Notes under the pieces: model-generated
The model's database searches: none
Told to the model about the DNA's origin: nothing
The model's input: only the letters and a program-made list of their open reading frames with translations
Assembly: GCA_026184775.1 (NCBI GenBank)
Contig: JANCYW010000009.1
Coordinates: forward strand, 310,001 to 374,000
Direction of reading: 5' to 3'
Length of the DNA: 64,000 bases
DNA from: Cyanidium caldarium
Lineage: Eukaryota > Rhodophyta > Bangiophyceae > Cyanidiales > Cyanidiaceae
Made by a program: the position numbers and the translations under genes
Shown: in pieces, positions 57,406 to 63,446 of the stretch
Numbering within the stretch: the first letter of the stretch is position 1
Layout: each line of letters starts with the position of its first letter

Positions 57406-57663
57406 AGTGCGTGGGGGCAGGGCCGAAAGGCACTCGCTGCGGTGGACGCTGTGCAGACAGTGACATACTGCCTTTCTGTGAGGATGGTGTTGGTGTTTGA
57501 CCTCCCAACGACGTGAACATGCTCCACCGACTCCGCATCGGCCATCGCGCGCCTCTCGTCCGTCCTCTCGCACACTCGTTCTTGTCGCACACCGAGCGCG
57601 CCCGCCTTCGACTTGTGCCTGATTCGAGGCGCCGACCGCCACACCGCGTACCTCACCGATCCC

Positions 57664-58578
57664 ATGGCCACGTCACGGTTACGAAAGCGGTGGGCGGCGG
57701 CGCGAGACGAACCCGACGCGTACCTGTTCGAGCAGCTGACGAGCACGCTGTACGACCGGCTGCTGAAGCAGGGGGACCGTCCGGCGGCCGCCGACCTGCT
57801 GCAAGAGAGCGTGGGACACTTGGCGCGGCTCGGTCGATGCGCCGAGGCAGCCGAATTGGGTATACGATGGATACGGCACCGACGAGAGGTGGATCGGGCT
57901 CCGTTCCGGGCGGCGGAGGTGTACGCGGTGTTGCACGCACCGATGGAGGCGCGCACCGAGGCGGCCACGTCGTTGGCGACTTGTTACGAGGCGGTGCTGC
58001 CGTGGTGTCTGGACGGTGCTGGAGTGGATGGATCGGACCGGTCTGCAGCGAGTCCGTTGTGGAAACCCATCACGACGCTCTTCACTGTCGGGGCCACTGC
58101 CACCACCTCTGCCGCCTCCTACGTGCGCCAGGTGCTGGTGGACGCGTATGTCGCCAGTGGTGACTGGCCGCGCGCCCAGTATCACCTGCTGCGCTGTGGC
58201 GGTCCGGCGGAGTTATCGTTGCGCTTTATCGACCAATATCTCGCGCCGCAGCTCGCCGACGAGGGGGAGCGTGGACTGGCGCGCGCCCGCCTCGCCCTCT
58301 TCTACTACGCGTTGGGTGACCTGGCCGCGGCGCGAGCGTACGTGGAGCTGTTGGAACGACAGCATCCGGCCGCGCCCACCACCCATTTGGCGTCCGCGGT
58401 GTCGCGCGCCCTGCAGCTACTGGGTAGCAAGGCGGGCGGCGATCGTCGAGCGGTGCGCGCGCTGTTGGACGAGCTGCAACGAGCGTACGCCCCGCTGCTG
58501 ACGGCCGACCCGGAGTTGCGTGCGTTGATGGACGAGGCGTGGCGCGTGCACCTCATCGCTGTTGCGAGAGGTCGATGA
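57664..58578 (+). CDS. GET4-like tail-anchored protein targeting factor
   Basis: The 304-residue protein is all-helical with TPR-like repeats. Its start MATSRLRKRW, the segment LFEQLTSTLYDRLLKQGD and ADLLQESVGHLARLGRCAEA resemble the first repeats of GET4; RQVLVDAYVASGDWPRAQYH and the end ELQRAYAPLLTADPELRALM fit its C-terminal part. GET4 binds GET5/UBL4 and delivers tail-anchored proteins to GET3. The match is by overall pattern and order, not by a diagnostic motif, so it could be another alpha-solenoid protein. The ATG at 57664 begins the conserved start. Confidence 0.6.
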   Translation: MATSRLRKRWAAARDEPDAYLFEQLTSTLYDRLLKQGDRPAAADLLQESVGHLARLGRCAEAAELGIRWIRHRREVDRAPFRAAEVYAVLHAPMEARTEAATSLATCYEAVLPWCLDGAGVDGSDRSAASPLWKPITTLFTVGATATTSAASYVRQVLVDAYVASGDWPRAQYHLLRCGGPAELSLRFIDQYLAPQLADEGERGLARARLALFYYALGDLAAARAYVELLERQHPAAPTTHLASAVSRALQLLGSKAGGDRRAVRALLDELQRAYAPLLTADPELRALMDEAWRVHLIAVARGR

Positions 58579-58741: not shown

Positions 58742-60991
58742 TCACTCTTCCGACATGGTCGCAGCTGGCGACAAGTCGGTCGGGCCGACGCGCTCCAGAA
58801 ACTTGGCCAGCTCTTTCAGCGAGCGGAATCGACGGCCGTCCGGCGACACGTACACGCGATCGATGCGGCCGGCCAGGGAGCCACCGCGGCGGATCTGCTC
58901 CTCTAATCGCCATCCGGCCGGCAACGTGAGGGTCATAGTGGGTTTGCGGCCGCCCTTGTGGCGACGATCGGCGGCGCCCGCGCCCACCACCAGACCGTCG
59001 GCGCCGGCCACCACTTTCCCGCCCGGGACGACCAGCGGTGCTGCCGGGCGCCGATCGGCCCCAGAGCCGGTAGTGGAGTGGGTGGCGGCGCGACGCCCGC
59101 CGTCGGATTCGGTGCGCGGTCGCCGCGATGGCGCCGGCGGCGGACGTCGCCCTCTGCCCGCCTGCAAGCTCTTCAAAATCGGATGCGCCGGCGCCTGCCA
59201 CGGCTGCCGCACCCACTCGTGGCGCTGCTGCCGCAGGTGCTCCAGCGCCTCGTCCATGTCCTCCTGTCGTTGGCGTTCGCGCGCGGCGGCCACTTGCGCG
59301 TCCCTCAACGCCAGCTGCTGCGCGGCCACAATGGAGCGGCCGTGCCGCTGCGGGTAAAACGCCTCCTCCCATTCCTCGTGCGGCGACGGGTGCGTCGCCC
59401 CAGCCGTGGTCACTGCCCGCCGCGACACCGCCACTGGCGCCTTGCTCTTCACCTGCCACTGATCGCCGCCGCGCCACGTGGCGTACGGCCGCAGCGCGTC
59501 CAGCCGCAGCCATTGCTCTTCCATGTCCGCAAACGCAATGAGGTATCCCTTGCGGGCCAAGTAGTCGCGCACCTGTCCGGCGATCCAACAGCCGCTGCGA
59601 TGCGCCGGCCATCGCGCCGCCGTCGAATCCAACGCCGACGCCGACGGCTGCTGCTGCTGCTGCTGCTGCGCATGGGTCGCCAAGCGCGGTGAATACCGCA
59701 CCCCAGCGACACGGGTGGCGCTGGTGGCCGCCGTCGCCGACGGCATGACCAGCGCCTCAACCGCTTCGCCAATGTCCGGCCGCCAATCTCGGGGCGCCAG
59801 CGGCGGCGCCGGCCGCAGACGCACGCCCAGGGCCACGCGCCGAACGGGCGTCACCGGCCGCTGCGGCATCTCCATTTCCCCGTGTCCCTCGTGCGGTGCG
59901 CCCGCGTTGTGAGATGGAGCCGGCGTGAGCAACTCGATCTCGTACGCCGTGCGGATGGTGGCCGGAATGCCGTCAAATTCCGAGAACCGGTCGATACCGT
60001 CTTCGCGGGCAATCTCCACCGCCGACAACAACGAGTCGGTGGGCGATTGCAGCGGCACGTTGCAGCGCACCACGCGCGCCGCATACCAGGCGCGCACCGG
60101 CCCGGAGGCGTCCAGCAGCTCAACCGGCTCGCCGGCACGATACGTGCGATGCGATTGCAGGCGCGGGGTGGGTGGCACGCGCGTGCGTGGCGAGCGATGC
60201 GGCGAGCGCAGAATCGGTGGCGGCCCTGTCAACGGCAACTGCATCAGGTCGGGATGCGTATCGAGTGCGGGAGCGGTGGCCTCGACGGCCATGCTCCCTG
60301 AAACATCGGAATCCGTATGCTTCGTCGTCGTCGTCGTCGTCGTCGCTCTTGAATCCTTGTTACTGGAATCAGACGCTGGGTGCTGGTGCTCTTGCACGCT
60401 CGCACCCGCAACGCCCAGCGCCGACAAACGCAGCGAGGCGTGTTGGGCGGCGTTGCCATCGGTCACAACCGATGCGACCGTCTCCGAGTGACGAGGAGCA
60501 CGAGCTTCTTCATTGGTATCCGGCGCCACCGCCTCCGAACTGGTCTCTGGCGCGGCGTCTCTGCAGGCGCCCTCGCTGGGCTTCCCGAGCCAGCGCGCCC
60601 GCCGGTTCTTAAACCACAGGCGGCACGACCCGAGCGGCACCTCGACCGCCTCCGCCAGCGCCCGCAACGTCTGCGACGATGGCGACGGGTTCACAGCAAA
60701 CGCCGTTTTCAAAGCCTCCATCTGCTCGGGCGTGAAACGGTGCCGCTTGACCCGCCTGGCCTCCGCGGCGGTCCCGCTGGCGGTGGCAGTCCTCTCCGTG
60801 CCCGCCTCCGCAGACGCCGCCACCTCCACCGGTGTCGAACCCTCGCGCACTTCCGCCTCTTCCTCCGTCTCCTCACCCGAACCGTGCCCCACGTCAGTCT
60901 GAAACGCCAACGCCGGTGCCGTGTCCACCGCCTCCGCGTTTTCAGCCTCCTCCCCGCCGCTCACCCACAACGCCACCTGCTGCTCGTCCAT
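58742..60991 (-). CDS. homeodomain - tandem Agenet/Tudor-like - MBD protein
   Basis: The 749-residue protein combines three chromatin modules. After an acidic N-terminus comes a homeodomain (about 79-138) with FTPEQMEALKTAF and the recognition helix CRLWFKNRRARW: Trp48, Phe49, Asn51 and Arg53 are kept, and position 50 is Lys. Two Agenet/Tudor-like segments follow: TYRAGEPVELLDASGPVRAW (then YAARVV), about 281-350, and GEAVEAL, GCWIAGQVRDYLARKGYLIA and EEQWLRLDALRPY, about 410-510. The C-terminus (about 683-735) resembles an MBD: TLPAGWRLEEQIRRGGSL, then RVYVSPDGRRFRSLKELAKF. The set suggests a nuclear DNA- and histone-binding regulator. The start at 60991 is the first Met of the acidic region. 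Confidence 0.75.
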   Translation of the reverse strand: MDEQQVALWVSGGEEAENAEAVDTAPALAFQTDVGHGSGEETEEEAEVREGSTPVEVAASAEAGTERTATASGTAAEARRVKRHRFTPEQMEALKTAFAVNPSPSSQTLRALAEAVEVPLGSCRLWFKNRRARWLGKPSEGACRDAAPETSSEAVAPDTNEEARAPRHSETVASVVTDGNAAQHASLRLSALGVAGASVQEHQHPASDSSNKDSRATTTTTTTKHTDSDVSGSMAVEATAPALDTHPDLMQLPLTGPPPILRSPHRSPRTRVPPTPRLQSHRTYRAGEPVELLDASGPVRAWYAARVVRCNVPLQSPTDSLLSAVEIAREDGIDRFSEFDGIPATIRTAYEIELLTPAPSHNAGAPHEGHGEMEMPQRPVTPVRRVALGVRLRPAPPLAPRDWRPDIGEAVEALVMPSATAATSATRVAGVRYSPRLATHAQQQQQQQPSASALDSTAARWPAHRSGCWIAGQVRDYLARKGYLIAFADMEEQWLRLDALRPYATWRGGDQWQVKSKAPVAVSRRAVTTAGATHPSPHEEWEEAFYPQRHGRSIVAAQQLALRDAQVAAARERQRQEDMDEALEHLRQQRHEWVRQPWQAPAHPILKSLQAGRGRRPPPAPSRRPRTESDGGRRAATHSTTGSGADRRPAAPLVVPGGKVVAGADGLVVGAGAADRRHKGGRKPTMTLTLPAGWRLEEQIRRGGSLAGRIDRVYVSPDGRRFRSLKELAKFLERVGPTDLSPAATMSEE

Positions 60992-61434
60992 GACGCCCAG
61001 CACCCACCACTCTCCACAAGCGTTACACGCCCCACTGCACTCTCTCCCCACACTATACCGCACCCATGCACGCTGTGCCCAGACACGTCTCCTGCGGTGC
61101 CGCTCGTGTCCAACCGTCGAAAGCGCGCAACGCCAAAAATACCGACGCACACGACCCATCACCGCACATCCCCGCCATCGGGCGCGATCGATCGATCGAT
61201 GCGGTCCGCGCGGCGGCCGGATCGCGGGCAGCGGGCACACACCGGAGAGGCGCGAGTCACCCGATCGCCGGGCACATGCGGGTTGGGCGGTTGACGGGCT
61301 GCGTGCGCGCGCGCGCGCTCTCTCTCTCTCCCTCCCCGTCTGTCTGTCTGGCGCGCCGAACCTCGTGGCGACCCGTAGACAACCTGCATTCCTCTCAAGC
61401 ACGCACGCACACACACACACAACAACAACAACGA

Positions 61435-61465
<31 letters not shown>

Positions 61466-61469
61466 AACG
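60992..61469. promoter_or_regulatory. divergent promoter/leader region of the homeodomain and EttA genes
   Basis: The 478-base spacer shows stacked simple repeats: GATC repeats near 61190-61200, alternating GC and CT runs at about 61306-61330, and a long CA/CAA/CGA run (61400-61469) that ends at the EttA ATG. No gene is supported. It must hold both promoters. Confidence 0.5.
61400..61469 (+). repeat. CA then (CAA/CGA)n repeat forming the EttA leader
   Basis: The repeat starts as ACGCACGC, passes through a CA run and continues as ACAACAACGACAACAACG-type units directly up to the start codon at 61470. It has almost no U and little G, so the mRNA leader would be unstructured, much like known CAA-repeat translation-enhancing leaders. 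The role is inference. Confidence 0.8.
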
Positions 61470-63446
61470 ATGGAAATGGCGTTCGTGTCCACTTTCCTGG
61501 GGCAGTCGTGCGCAACCCGCTTTGCTTGGTCATTTCAGGGGGAGGCGGTCGGACGGCGGCGGCCGCCGACGACGCGGCTCGCACGTCACTCGCTGCGCAT
61601 GGGTCTGAATGCGTCCAAATTGAAGAAGCAGATGCAGGGCGGTGGCAAGAAGAAGGGCAAGGCGGCCACGGCGGAGAGGCGTGGTGGTGGCGGTGGTGGT
61701 GGGCGCGTCGATGCCACCCGCAAAGAGTACATGTTTCAAATGTGGCGCGTCTCCAAGACGCTGCCCAACGGCAAGGAGCTTCTGAAGGATATCAACTTGG
61801 CGTTCTTCCCGGGCGCCAAGATCGGTGTGGTGGGCAGCAACGGCGCCGGAAAATCGACGCTGCTGCGTGTGATGGCCGGGGTGGACACCGACTTTGAGGG
61901 CGAAGCGCGGCCGCTGGTGGGCGCCACGATCGGGTTCCTGCCGCAGGAGCCGGAGCTGAACGACGGCGAGACGGTGCAGGAGAATGTGGAGGCGGCGGTG
62001 GCGGAGGTGAAGCGGGATCTGCGGCGTCTGGAGGAGCTGTCGCACCAGATGGCCGACATGTCGCTGTCGGAGGAGGAGCGGGAGCGCGCCGCCAAGGAGA
62101 TGGATCGGGTGCAGGCCGCCATCGAGGCTGCCGACGGCTACAATTTGGATTCCATCCTGGAGCGGGCGCTGGAGGCGTTGCGCGCCCCACCCGGCGATGC
62201 GCGGGTGGCCACCCTGTCCGGCGGTGAGCGGCGGCGGGTGGCGCTGGTGCGGCTGCTGATCAAGCGGCCGGATTTGTTGCTGCTGGACGAGCCCACCAAT
62301 CATCTGGATGCCGAGTCGGTGTTGTGGCTAGAGCAGTTTCTGTCCAAGTACTACACCGGCACCGTCGTGGCCATCACGCACTCGCGCTCGTTCCTGGAGA
62401 ACACCTGCGAGTGGATCCTGGAGATGGACGGCGGACGCGGCATTCCGCACCAGGGCAACTACTCGTCGTGGTTGCAGGCGAAACAGGAGCGGCTGGCGCT
62501 GGACAAGAAGGAGGTCGACAGCCGCCGCCGCCTCATCGAGGCCGAGTTGGAGTGGATCCGGGCGACGCCCTCGGCCCGGCAAGCCAAGAACAAGGCGCGT
62601 GTGGATCGCTTCGAGGAGCTGTACTCGCGACAGAGAGGCCACGAGGCGGACAGCTCGCACCAGCTGGGCATGAACCAGATCGTCATGCCGGTCGGGCCGC
62701 ACCTGGGCGACGTGGTTATCGAGGCGGAGCACCTGTGCAAGGCGTACGGCGAGCGGGCGCTCATCCACGATGCCACCTTCTCCATACCGCGCGGCTCGGT
62801 GGTGGGCATCATCGGCGGCAATGGCGCCGGCAAGTCGACGCTCTTCCGCATGATTATCGGGCAGGAGCAGCCGGACTCGGGCGTGCTGCGCGTCGGCGAG
62901 ACCGTGAAGCTGATGTACGCGGACCAGAGCCGGGAGAGTTTGAATGCTGCCCACACCGTGTACGAGGAGATCTGCGGCGGTAAGGAGAATATCGGTGAGG
63001 TGCTGACGTTGGGCACGCGGCAGGTGAATGCGCGCGCGTATTGCTCGTGGTTCAACTTCCGCGGCGCCGACCAGCAAAAATTGGTCGGTCAGCTGAGCGG
63101 CGGCGAGCGCAACCGGCTCAACCTGGCCAAGGCGATTCTGAACCGCGAGCACGGCGGCGCGGGCAACGTGTTGTTGTTGGACGAGCCGGGCAACGATTTG
63201 GACACCGCCACGCTGGCCAACCTGGAGCAGGCCATTCTGGACTTTCCGGGCGTGGTGTTGGCCATCAGTCACGACCCGTGGTTCTTGTCGCGGGTGGCCA
63301 CGCACATTCTGGCGTTCGAGGGCAACTCCGAGCTGCGTTTCTACACCGGCGGCTTTGAGGAGTATCAGGCGGACAAGGCGGCGCGGCTGGGTGCGCAGGC
63401 GGTGACTCCGTCGCGGATGAAGTTTCGCCCACTGCCCAAGATGTGA
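61470..63446 (+). CDS. EttA-type ABC-F protein, plastid-targeted
   Basis: The protein of about 658 residues is an ABC-F ATPase of the EttA type. The core opens with YMFQMWRVSKTLPNGKELLK and LAFFPGAKIGVVGSNGAGKS, keeps LSGGERRRVALVRLL and LLLLDEPTNHLDAES in the first half, and GGNGAGKST, QLSGGERNRLNLAKAI and LLLDEPGNDLDTATLANLE in the second. The second Walker B reads DEPGNDLD, not DEPTNDLD. EttA-like factors gate the ribosomal E site according to energy status. About 85 residues precede the core, with an RRR-x-PPTTRLARHSLRM transit-like stretch followed by a Lys/Gly-rich segment; plastid targeting fits the bacterial (cyanobacterial) type of sequence. Confidence 0.92.
   Translation: MEMAFVSTFLGQSCATRFAWSFQGEAVGRRRPPTTRLARHSLRMGLNASKLKKQMQGGGKKKGKAATAERRGGGGGGGRVDATRKEYMFQMWRVSKTLPNGKELLKDINLAFFPGAKIGVVGSNGAGKSTLLRVMAGVDTDFEGEARPLVGATIGFLPQEPELNDGETVQENVEAAVAEVKRDLRRLEELSHQMADMSLSEEERERAAKEMDRVQAAIEAADGYNLDSILERALEALRAPPGDARVATLSGGERRRVALVRLLIKRPDLLLLDEPTNHLDAESVLWLEQFLSKYYTGTVVAITHSRSFLENTCEWILEMDGGRGIPHQGNYSSWLQAKQERLALDKKEVDSRRRLIEAELEWIRATPSARQAKNKARVDRFEELYSRQRGHEADSSHQLGMNQIVMPVGPHLGDVVIEAEHLCKAYGERALIHDATFSIPRGSVVGIIGGNGAGKSTLFRMIIGQEQPDSGVLRVGETVKLMYADQSRESLNAAHTVYEEICGGKENIGEVLTLGTRQVNARAYCSWFNFRGADQQKLVGQLSGGERNRLNLAKAILNREHGGAGNVLLLDEPGNDLDTATLANLEQAILDFPGVVLAISHDPWFLSRVATHILAFEGNSELRFYTGGFEEYQADKAARLGAQAVTPSRMKFRPLPKM

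What the first reader, a model, noticed from the sequence alone, without database searches (positions are those of the whole stretch)
58742..60991. Homeodomain, tandem Agenet-like and MBD modules in one protein
A TALE-less homeodomain with a Lys at position 50, two Agenet/Tudor-like segments and a C-terminal MBD occur in one 749-residue chain. I know of proteins with Agenet plus MBD-like or homeodomain plus other readers, but not this set. It could join sequence-specific DNA binding with reading of methylated histones and methylated DNA. Aligned by eye, the MBD keeps the Asp and the Arg-Ser pair of methyl-CpG binders but has Val where a key Tyr is usual, so methyl-CpG binding is open.
Basis: partly seen in the sequence, partly recalled or inferred. 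Interest (0 to 1): 0.75.

Follow-up and report, generated by a model that had tools for sequence, protein, structure and literature searches.

The report
Homeodomain, Agenet-like, MBD protein in algae
A tiny red alga encodes one protein that joins a sequence-specific DNA-binding part, a chromatin-type double module and a methyl-DNA-type binding part, a combination kept in its relatives whose binding partners are still untested.

Summary
ORF 60991-58742 (-) encodes 749 aa with a 60-residue non-TALE homeodomain (Pfam 49.2 bits, Lys50) and a C-terminal MBD (44.5 bits). The two Agenet-like segments fail the Pfam cut-off in the intact protein (13.9 bits; cut-off 27). They pass it as a tandem once inserted loops are cut out (30.0 bits; 32.3 and 34.0 in two relatives); seven reversed controls gave nothing. 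A loop-free relative's second unit is predicted to fold as a Tudor barrel, closest to plant AGDP3/ADCP1. Four orthologues, one from Cyanidiococcus, keep all three parts on one chain. The proposed reading of methylated histones and DNA is only partly supported: at most one of three cage residues remains in unit 2, and the mCpG-selectivity Tyr is Val in all five MBDs. I judge it a chromatin adaptor with two DNA-binding ends. It holds the only MBD found in a genome where one cytosine-5 DNA methylase domain, DNMT3A-like, was detected. The domains are known; I found no paper describing the combination.

The parts
58742..60991 (-). Single uninterrupted ORF, 749 aa plus stop: homeodomain + tandem Agenet-like + MBD protein
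   Evidence: orthologues with the same order
60578..60757 (-). Homeodomain (residues 79-138), non-TALE, Lys50 (residue 128), Asn51, Arg5
   Evidence: PF00046 49.2 bits; numbering and spacing; AF2 pLDDT 79-93 by ten-residue block over residues 81-130
59801..60148 (-). Agenet-like unit 1 (residues 282-397) with an insert between its two halves (about residues 313-383)
   Evidence: loop-excised unit 19.8 bits, tandem 30.0 bits against 27; boundaries from the family alignment
59414..59800 (-). Agenet-like unit 2 (residues 398-526) with a loop holding a Gln run (about residues 417-465)
   Evidence: loop-excised unit 14.1 bits; the loop-free unit of P0007 is predicted as a Tudor barrel, best matches AGDP3/ADCP1
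58925..59011 (-). Conserved stretch before the MBD (residues 661-689), contains GGRKP, AT-hook-like by eye
   Evidence: 79% identical to each of P0004, P0005 and P0006; the AT-hook likeness is recalled, not tested
58781..58924 (-). MBD (residues 690-737); Arg701, Asp711 and Arg723 kept, Val713 in place of MBD2 Tyr178
   Evidence: PF01429 44.5 bits; alignment to MBD2, all five family MBDs; MBD2 numbering from PMC9520026 passages

Best explanation
It is a chromatin adaptor with two DNA-binding ends. The homeodomain picks sites by sequence. The MBD holds nearby CpG-containing DNA with its two Arg fingers but with weak or no preference for methylation, like MBD3. The Agenet-like pair between them binds a protein or histone tail without the canonical H3K9me2 cage. 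Together they would hold a regulator at chosen loci. Shown here: homeodomain and MBD by profile, the Agenet-like pair by loop-excised profile and a relative's predicted fold, the conserved order, and the residue changes. Inferred: all DNA binding, the weak methyl preference, the adaptor action and any link to DNMT3 or PRC2 silencing.
For: Homeodomain and MBD are well over the Pfam cut-offs. Key DNA-contact residues of the homeodomain are present. In all five family MBDs both Arg fingers and the Asp are kept and the Tyr is Val. A single Tyr-to-Phe change is given as the main cause of the lower mCpG selectivity of MBD3 (PMC9520026, passages). Agenet-like pair: loop-excised tandem 30.0 bits with seven null reversed controls; AGDP3 is the best PDB match; the second unit of P0007 is predicted as a Tudor barrel with AGDP3 on top. 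Cage positions of ADCP1 (Y129, W134, F151) read V, I and F in P0001 and T, L and S or T in P0007. Identity to P0004, P0005 and P0006: MBD 81-85%, homeodomain 63-68%, Agenet-like cores 52-71%, the two long linkers 15-25%.
Against: No binding or expression data. Cage residues were read from pairwise alignments at low identity; in P0001 a loop sits beside the first cage position, so that position is uncertain, and a different cage, above all in unit 1, was not excluded. I know of no assay of an MBD with Val at this site, so methyl preference is not excluded. The genome does carry a DNMT3A-like methylase.
Confidence: 0.5

Rival explanations
1. It is a true multivalent silencing reader: the MBD reads mCpG deposited by the DNMT3-like enzyme, the Agenet-like pair reads a methylated histone, and the homeodomain chooses the loci.
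For: One MBD and one DNA methylase domain were found in the genome (the tool calls its counts lower bounds); the methylase is DNMT3A-like. Dnmt3 is reported as diploid-dominant in three Cyanidiales (PMC13353863, passages). The MBD is strongly constrained and keeps both Arg fingers.
Against: Tyr to Val in the MBD and at least two of three cage residues non-aromatic in unit 2. CpG is not depleted in the window (observed/expected 1.19), which argues against dense, long-standing CpG methylation there. No Pre-SET H3K9 methylase was found, but that search is inconclusive because nothing rang in its control genomes.
Confidence: 0.25
2. It is an ordinary homeodomain transcription factor in which the MBD serves mainly as a second DNA clamp or protein surface and the Agenet-like pair is structural only.
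For: Homeodomain intact; most cage residues absent in unit 2; an MBD lacking the Tyr, as in MBD3.
Against: Agenet-like cores are conserved at 52-71% and are kept in P0007, where no MBD was seen, which suggests more than passive structure.
Confidence: 0.2
3. The ORF fuses two genes by an assembly or annotation error.
For: No transcript was available to me.
Against: The same order lies on one chain in four other records (P0002, P0004, P0005, P0006), and Cyanidium is reported to have fewer than 50 introns (PMC9812998, passages).
Confidence: 0.03

Closest known systems
ADCP1/AGDP1 and AGDP3 of land plants (tandem Agenet H3K9me2 readers)
   Same: Tandem pair; AGDP3 is the best PDB sequence match of the loop-excised P0007 tandem (E 1.1e-5) and AGDP3 chains head both fold searches with its unit 2
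   Different: Their cage residues are mostly not kept in unit 2 here; a homeodomain or MBD in them is not mentioned in the passages I read
MBD2/MBD3 of animals and MBD6 of Arabidopsis
   Same: MBD with 22 of 45 residues identical to MBD2 and both Arg fingers kept
   Different: Val at the Tyr178 position, where MBD3 has Phe; that these proteins lack homeodomain and Agenet is recalled
SHH1 (homeodomain + SAWADEE tandem Tudor)
   Same: Homeodomain joined to a tandem Tudor-like module (homeodomain of SHH1 recalled); the SAWADEE domain reads H3K9me2 with a topology like AGDP1 (PMC6208443, passages)
   Different: No SAWADEE family in the Pfam scan of P0001; no MBD in SHH1 (recalled)
SETDB1 (Tudor domains + MBD + SET)
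   Same: Tudor-type modules and an MBD on one chain (recalled)
   Different: No SET family in the Pfam scan of P0001, and a homeodomain instead

Membership tests
Homeodomain (PF00046), non-TALE | Profile score over the curated cut-off, standard spacing, WFxN with Asn51 | tested here: met
   49.2 bits against 22.9; WFKN at residues 126-129 and 28 steps from position 20 to 48
MBD (PF01429) | Profile score over the curated cut-off | tested here: met
   44.5 bits against 21
Methyl-CpG-selective MBD | Two Arg fingers plus Tyr (MBD2 R166, Y178, R188) | tested here: not met
   Arg701 and Arg723 kept, Tyr replaced by Val713
Methyl-CpG-selective MBD | Binding preference for mCpG in vitro | not testable with these tools
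   needs a binding assay
Agenet domain (PF05641) | Profile score over the cut-off in the intact protein | tested here: not met
   13.9 bits against 27; no match in the six-frame genome search. I therefore write Agenet-like
Agenet domain (PF05641) | Profile score over the cut-off after removing inserted loops, with reversed controls | tested here: met
   Tandems 30.0 (P0001), 32.3 (P0006), 34.0 (P0007); seven reversals none. Single units of P0001 and P0006 stay below 27
Agenet / Tudor fold | Small beta barrel matching solved Agenet pairs | tested here: inconclusive
ADCP1/AGDP1 H3K9me2 reader | Aromatic cage (ADCP1 Y129, W134, F151) in the second Agenet of a pair | tested here: not met
   V, I, F in P0001; T, L, S or T in P0007
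SHH1/SAWADEE | SAWADEE profile hit | tested here: inconclusive
   No SAWADEE family listed at E up to 10, but HMMER filters drop most weak matches

The most novel reading that the evidence does not exclude
A single protein is the methyl-DNA effector of a minimal red algal DNMT3 system: the homeodomain chooses loci, the MBD recognises CpG methylation through a Val-containing pocket unlike the usual Tyr one, and the Agenet-like pair reads a histone state by a non-canonical site, giving a three-input switch for the haploid-diploid transition.
Probability: 0.15. Interest if true: 0.75.

Novelty: new variant of a known kind. Interest (0 to 1): 0.5.

Why it matters
If it binds as its parts suggest, one chain couples sequence choice to chromatin contact in a genome of about 8.8 Mb where one MBD and one cytosine-5 DNA methylase domain were detected. 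The question of who reads DNA methylation in these algae would then come close to a one-gene test, in Cyanidiococcus, where the orthologue is seen, or in the model Cyanidioschyzon if the orthologue is there (none was named in my hits). It would also place a tandem Agenet-like module of the plant type in red algae, and so possibly in the common ancestor of red algae and plants.

Tried and rejected
The whole-protein structure prediction was uninformative: mean pLDDT 36.6 with six rows, high only in the homeodomain, moderate in one helix (about residues 546-595), and low (37-55) even over the MBD. It was not searched. A profile search with the whole alignment listed 5 proteins of 7997 scored candidates, and a region search with P0007 listed only P0007 of 7981 scored. 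In both, only the candidates sharing most words were scored, so misses prove nothing; P0004 was absent though listed. No Cyanidioschyzon merolae protein was named among the hits.

Considered and dropped: TALE class (spacing); fusion artefact; kinship with double homeobox proteins (DUX4 heads the PDB list for the homeodomain, but one hit list is no classification). My first reading of the other homeodomain matches as mostly TALE was mended: by spacing and reading L004 and L005 are TALE-like, L003 is standard, and L002 has one extra residue and is left open. P0007 unit 2, uncut, gave no Pfam hit. The SRA and Pre-SET searches found nothing, but nothing rang in their control genomes either, so absence is not shown.

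Print: five searches showed 2 of 2, 5 of 5, 20 of 37, 16 of 18 and 15 of 518 papers. No listed title or start of abstract describes a homeodomain + Agenet + MBD protein. Of those listed I read passages only of PMC10808059, PMC8566409, PMC6208443 and PMC4280507. The library is open-licence only, and the gene lists in the supplements of PMC13353863 could not be read here, so this gene may appear there.

Full report
What was checked. The reverse-strand ORF at 60991-58742 is as described: 749 residues and a stop. The window lies in a genome of 8,787,356 bases in 20 contigs, a mean of 439.4 kb per contig. That equals the smallest mean chromosome size given for three 20-chromosome Cyanidiales (PMC9812998, passages). 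One sentence of that paper gives 12.0 and 8.8 Mbp for Cyanidium and Cyanidiococcus 'respectively', the opposite of the other passage.

Is it one gene? The frame is open for 916 codons. Four orthologues (P0002, P0004, P0005, P0006) have homeodomain and MBD by profile and the same region between them by alignment. A fifth record, P0003, ends after residue 395 of this protein. P0005 is a named Cyanidiococcus yangmingshanensis protein, whose source label already calls it a homeobox domain protein. Cyanidium is reported to have fewer than 50 introns. Start: P0002, P0004 and P0005 begin with the aligned Met-Asp, P0006 with a Met in the same column, and P0003 is modelled 56 residues further upstream.

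Homeodomain. PF00046 scores 49.2 bits. Arg5, Phe8, Trp48, Phe49, Lys50, Asn51 and Arg53 are present, and the spacing is standard, not TALE (the rule is recalled). Lys50 is invariant in the six aligned sequences, P0007 included. Five homeodomain matches were found in the genome, this one among them. By reading and spacing L003 is standard, L004 and L005 are TALE-like, and L002 is left open.

MBD. PF01429 scores 44.5 bits; it is the one MBD match found in the genome. In the ungapped alignment to MBD2, 22 of 45 residues are identical. MBD2 uses R166, Y178 and R188, and the lower selectivity of MBD3 is put down mainly to Tyr-to-Phe (PMC9520026, passages). Here these positions are Arg701, Val713 and Arg723, and all five family MBDs read Arg, Asp, Val, Arg at the four key sites. 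The MBD is the best conserved domain: 81, 85 and 83% identical to P0004, P0005 and P0006, against 15-25% in the two long linkers. It is under constraint for some function.

Cage. ADCP1 holds H3K9me2 with Y129, W134 and F151 (PMC6318295, passages); RsAGDP1 with Y122, W127 and F144 (PMC6208443, passages). I placed these in the ADCP1 sequence by pattern. The matching residues are T, L and S or T in P0007 and V, I and F in the loop-excised P0001 piece. In P0001 the loop starts beside the first position, so that one is uncertain. Canonical H3K9me2 reading is therefore unlikely; another pocket, above all in unit 1, is not excluded.

Genome setting. One DNA methylase match was found: a 654-aa protein with a PHD-like finger below its cut-off (21.8 against 24 bits), whose best PDB matches are DNMT3A. 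A 2026 paper calls Dnmt3 the only predicted enzyme for DNA methylation, diploid-dominant in Cyanidiococcus, Cyanidioschyzon and Cyanidium (PMC13353863, passages); its main text has no occurrence of MBD or methyl-CpG. A review also places a DNMT3-like protein in Cyanidioschyzon (PMC9861306, passages). The two chromodomain matches lie in one frame that reads as a CHD-like remodeller. The five SET matches read as E(z)-like, two SET1/TRX-like, one ASH1/SETD2-like and one Rubisco-LSMT-like (names recalled). Counts from this genome tool are lower bounds. CpG observed/expected is 1.19 in the window and 1.16-1.23 in its eight 8-kb blocks: no sign of old, dense CpG methylation there, though sparse or phase-limited methylation would not show.

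Interpretation. The best reading is a chromatin adaptor with two DNA-binding ends and a central Agenet-like pair. Reading of methylated CpG and methylated histones, as first proposed, is possible, but the residues known to mediate it are partly lost. No listed paper in five searches describes this set of modules, in an open-licence library seen only in part. The novelty lies in the combination and its setting, not in a new domain.

Noticed in passing
L007:568-2532 (+), G000:C10 near 430437: DNMT3A-like cytosine methylase of 654 aa with a PHD-like finger below its Pfam cut-off; the one DNA_methylase match found in this genome. DNMT3 in these algae is already in print (PMC13353863 and PMC9861306, passages).
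   Followed up: partly
window 1-64000: CpG observed/expected is 1.19, not depleted, although the genome has a DNMT3-like gene.
   Followed up: partly
protein P0007, residues 74-1054: An unnamed 1293-aa relative has the same homeodomain and Agenet-like pair but no recognisable MBD; whether the MBD was gained, lost or lies in an unseen exon is open.
   Followed up: partly
58925-59011 (-): The 29 residues before the MBD, with an AT-hook-like GGRKP (by eye), are nearly as conserved as the MBD (79% to each of three relatives).
   Followed up: no
60921-63446 (+) and 57613-58578 (+): Neighbours: a two-domain ABC ATPase (ABCF-like by eye) in divergent orientation, whose ORF as listed overlaps this gene's start, so a later start is likely; and an ORF with a below-cut-off GET4 match (27.5 against 30 bits) converging on the 3' end.
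   Followed up: no
L002 and L005 (G000:C9, 177094-178517): Two further homeodomain matches lie about 1.2 kb apart on the same contig and strand; L005 reads as TALE-like, L002 has one extra residue before Trp48 and is unclassified.
   Followed up: no
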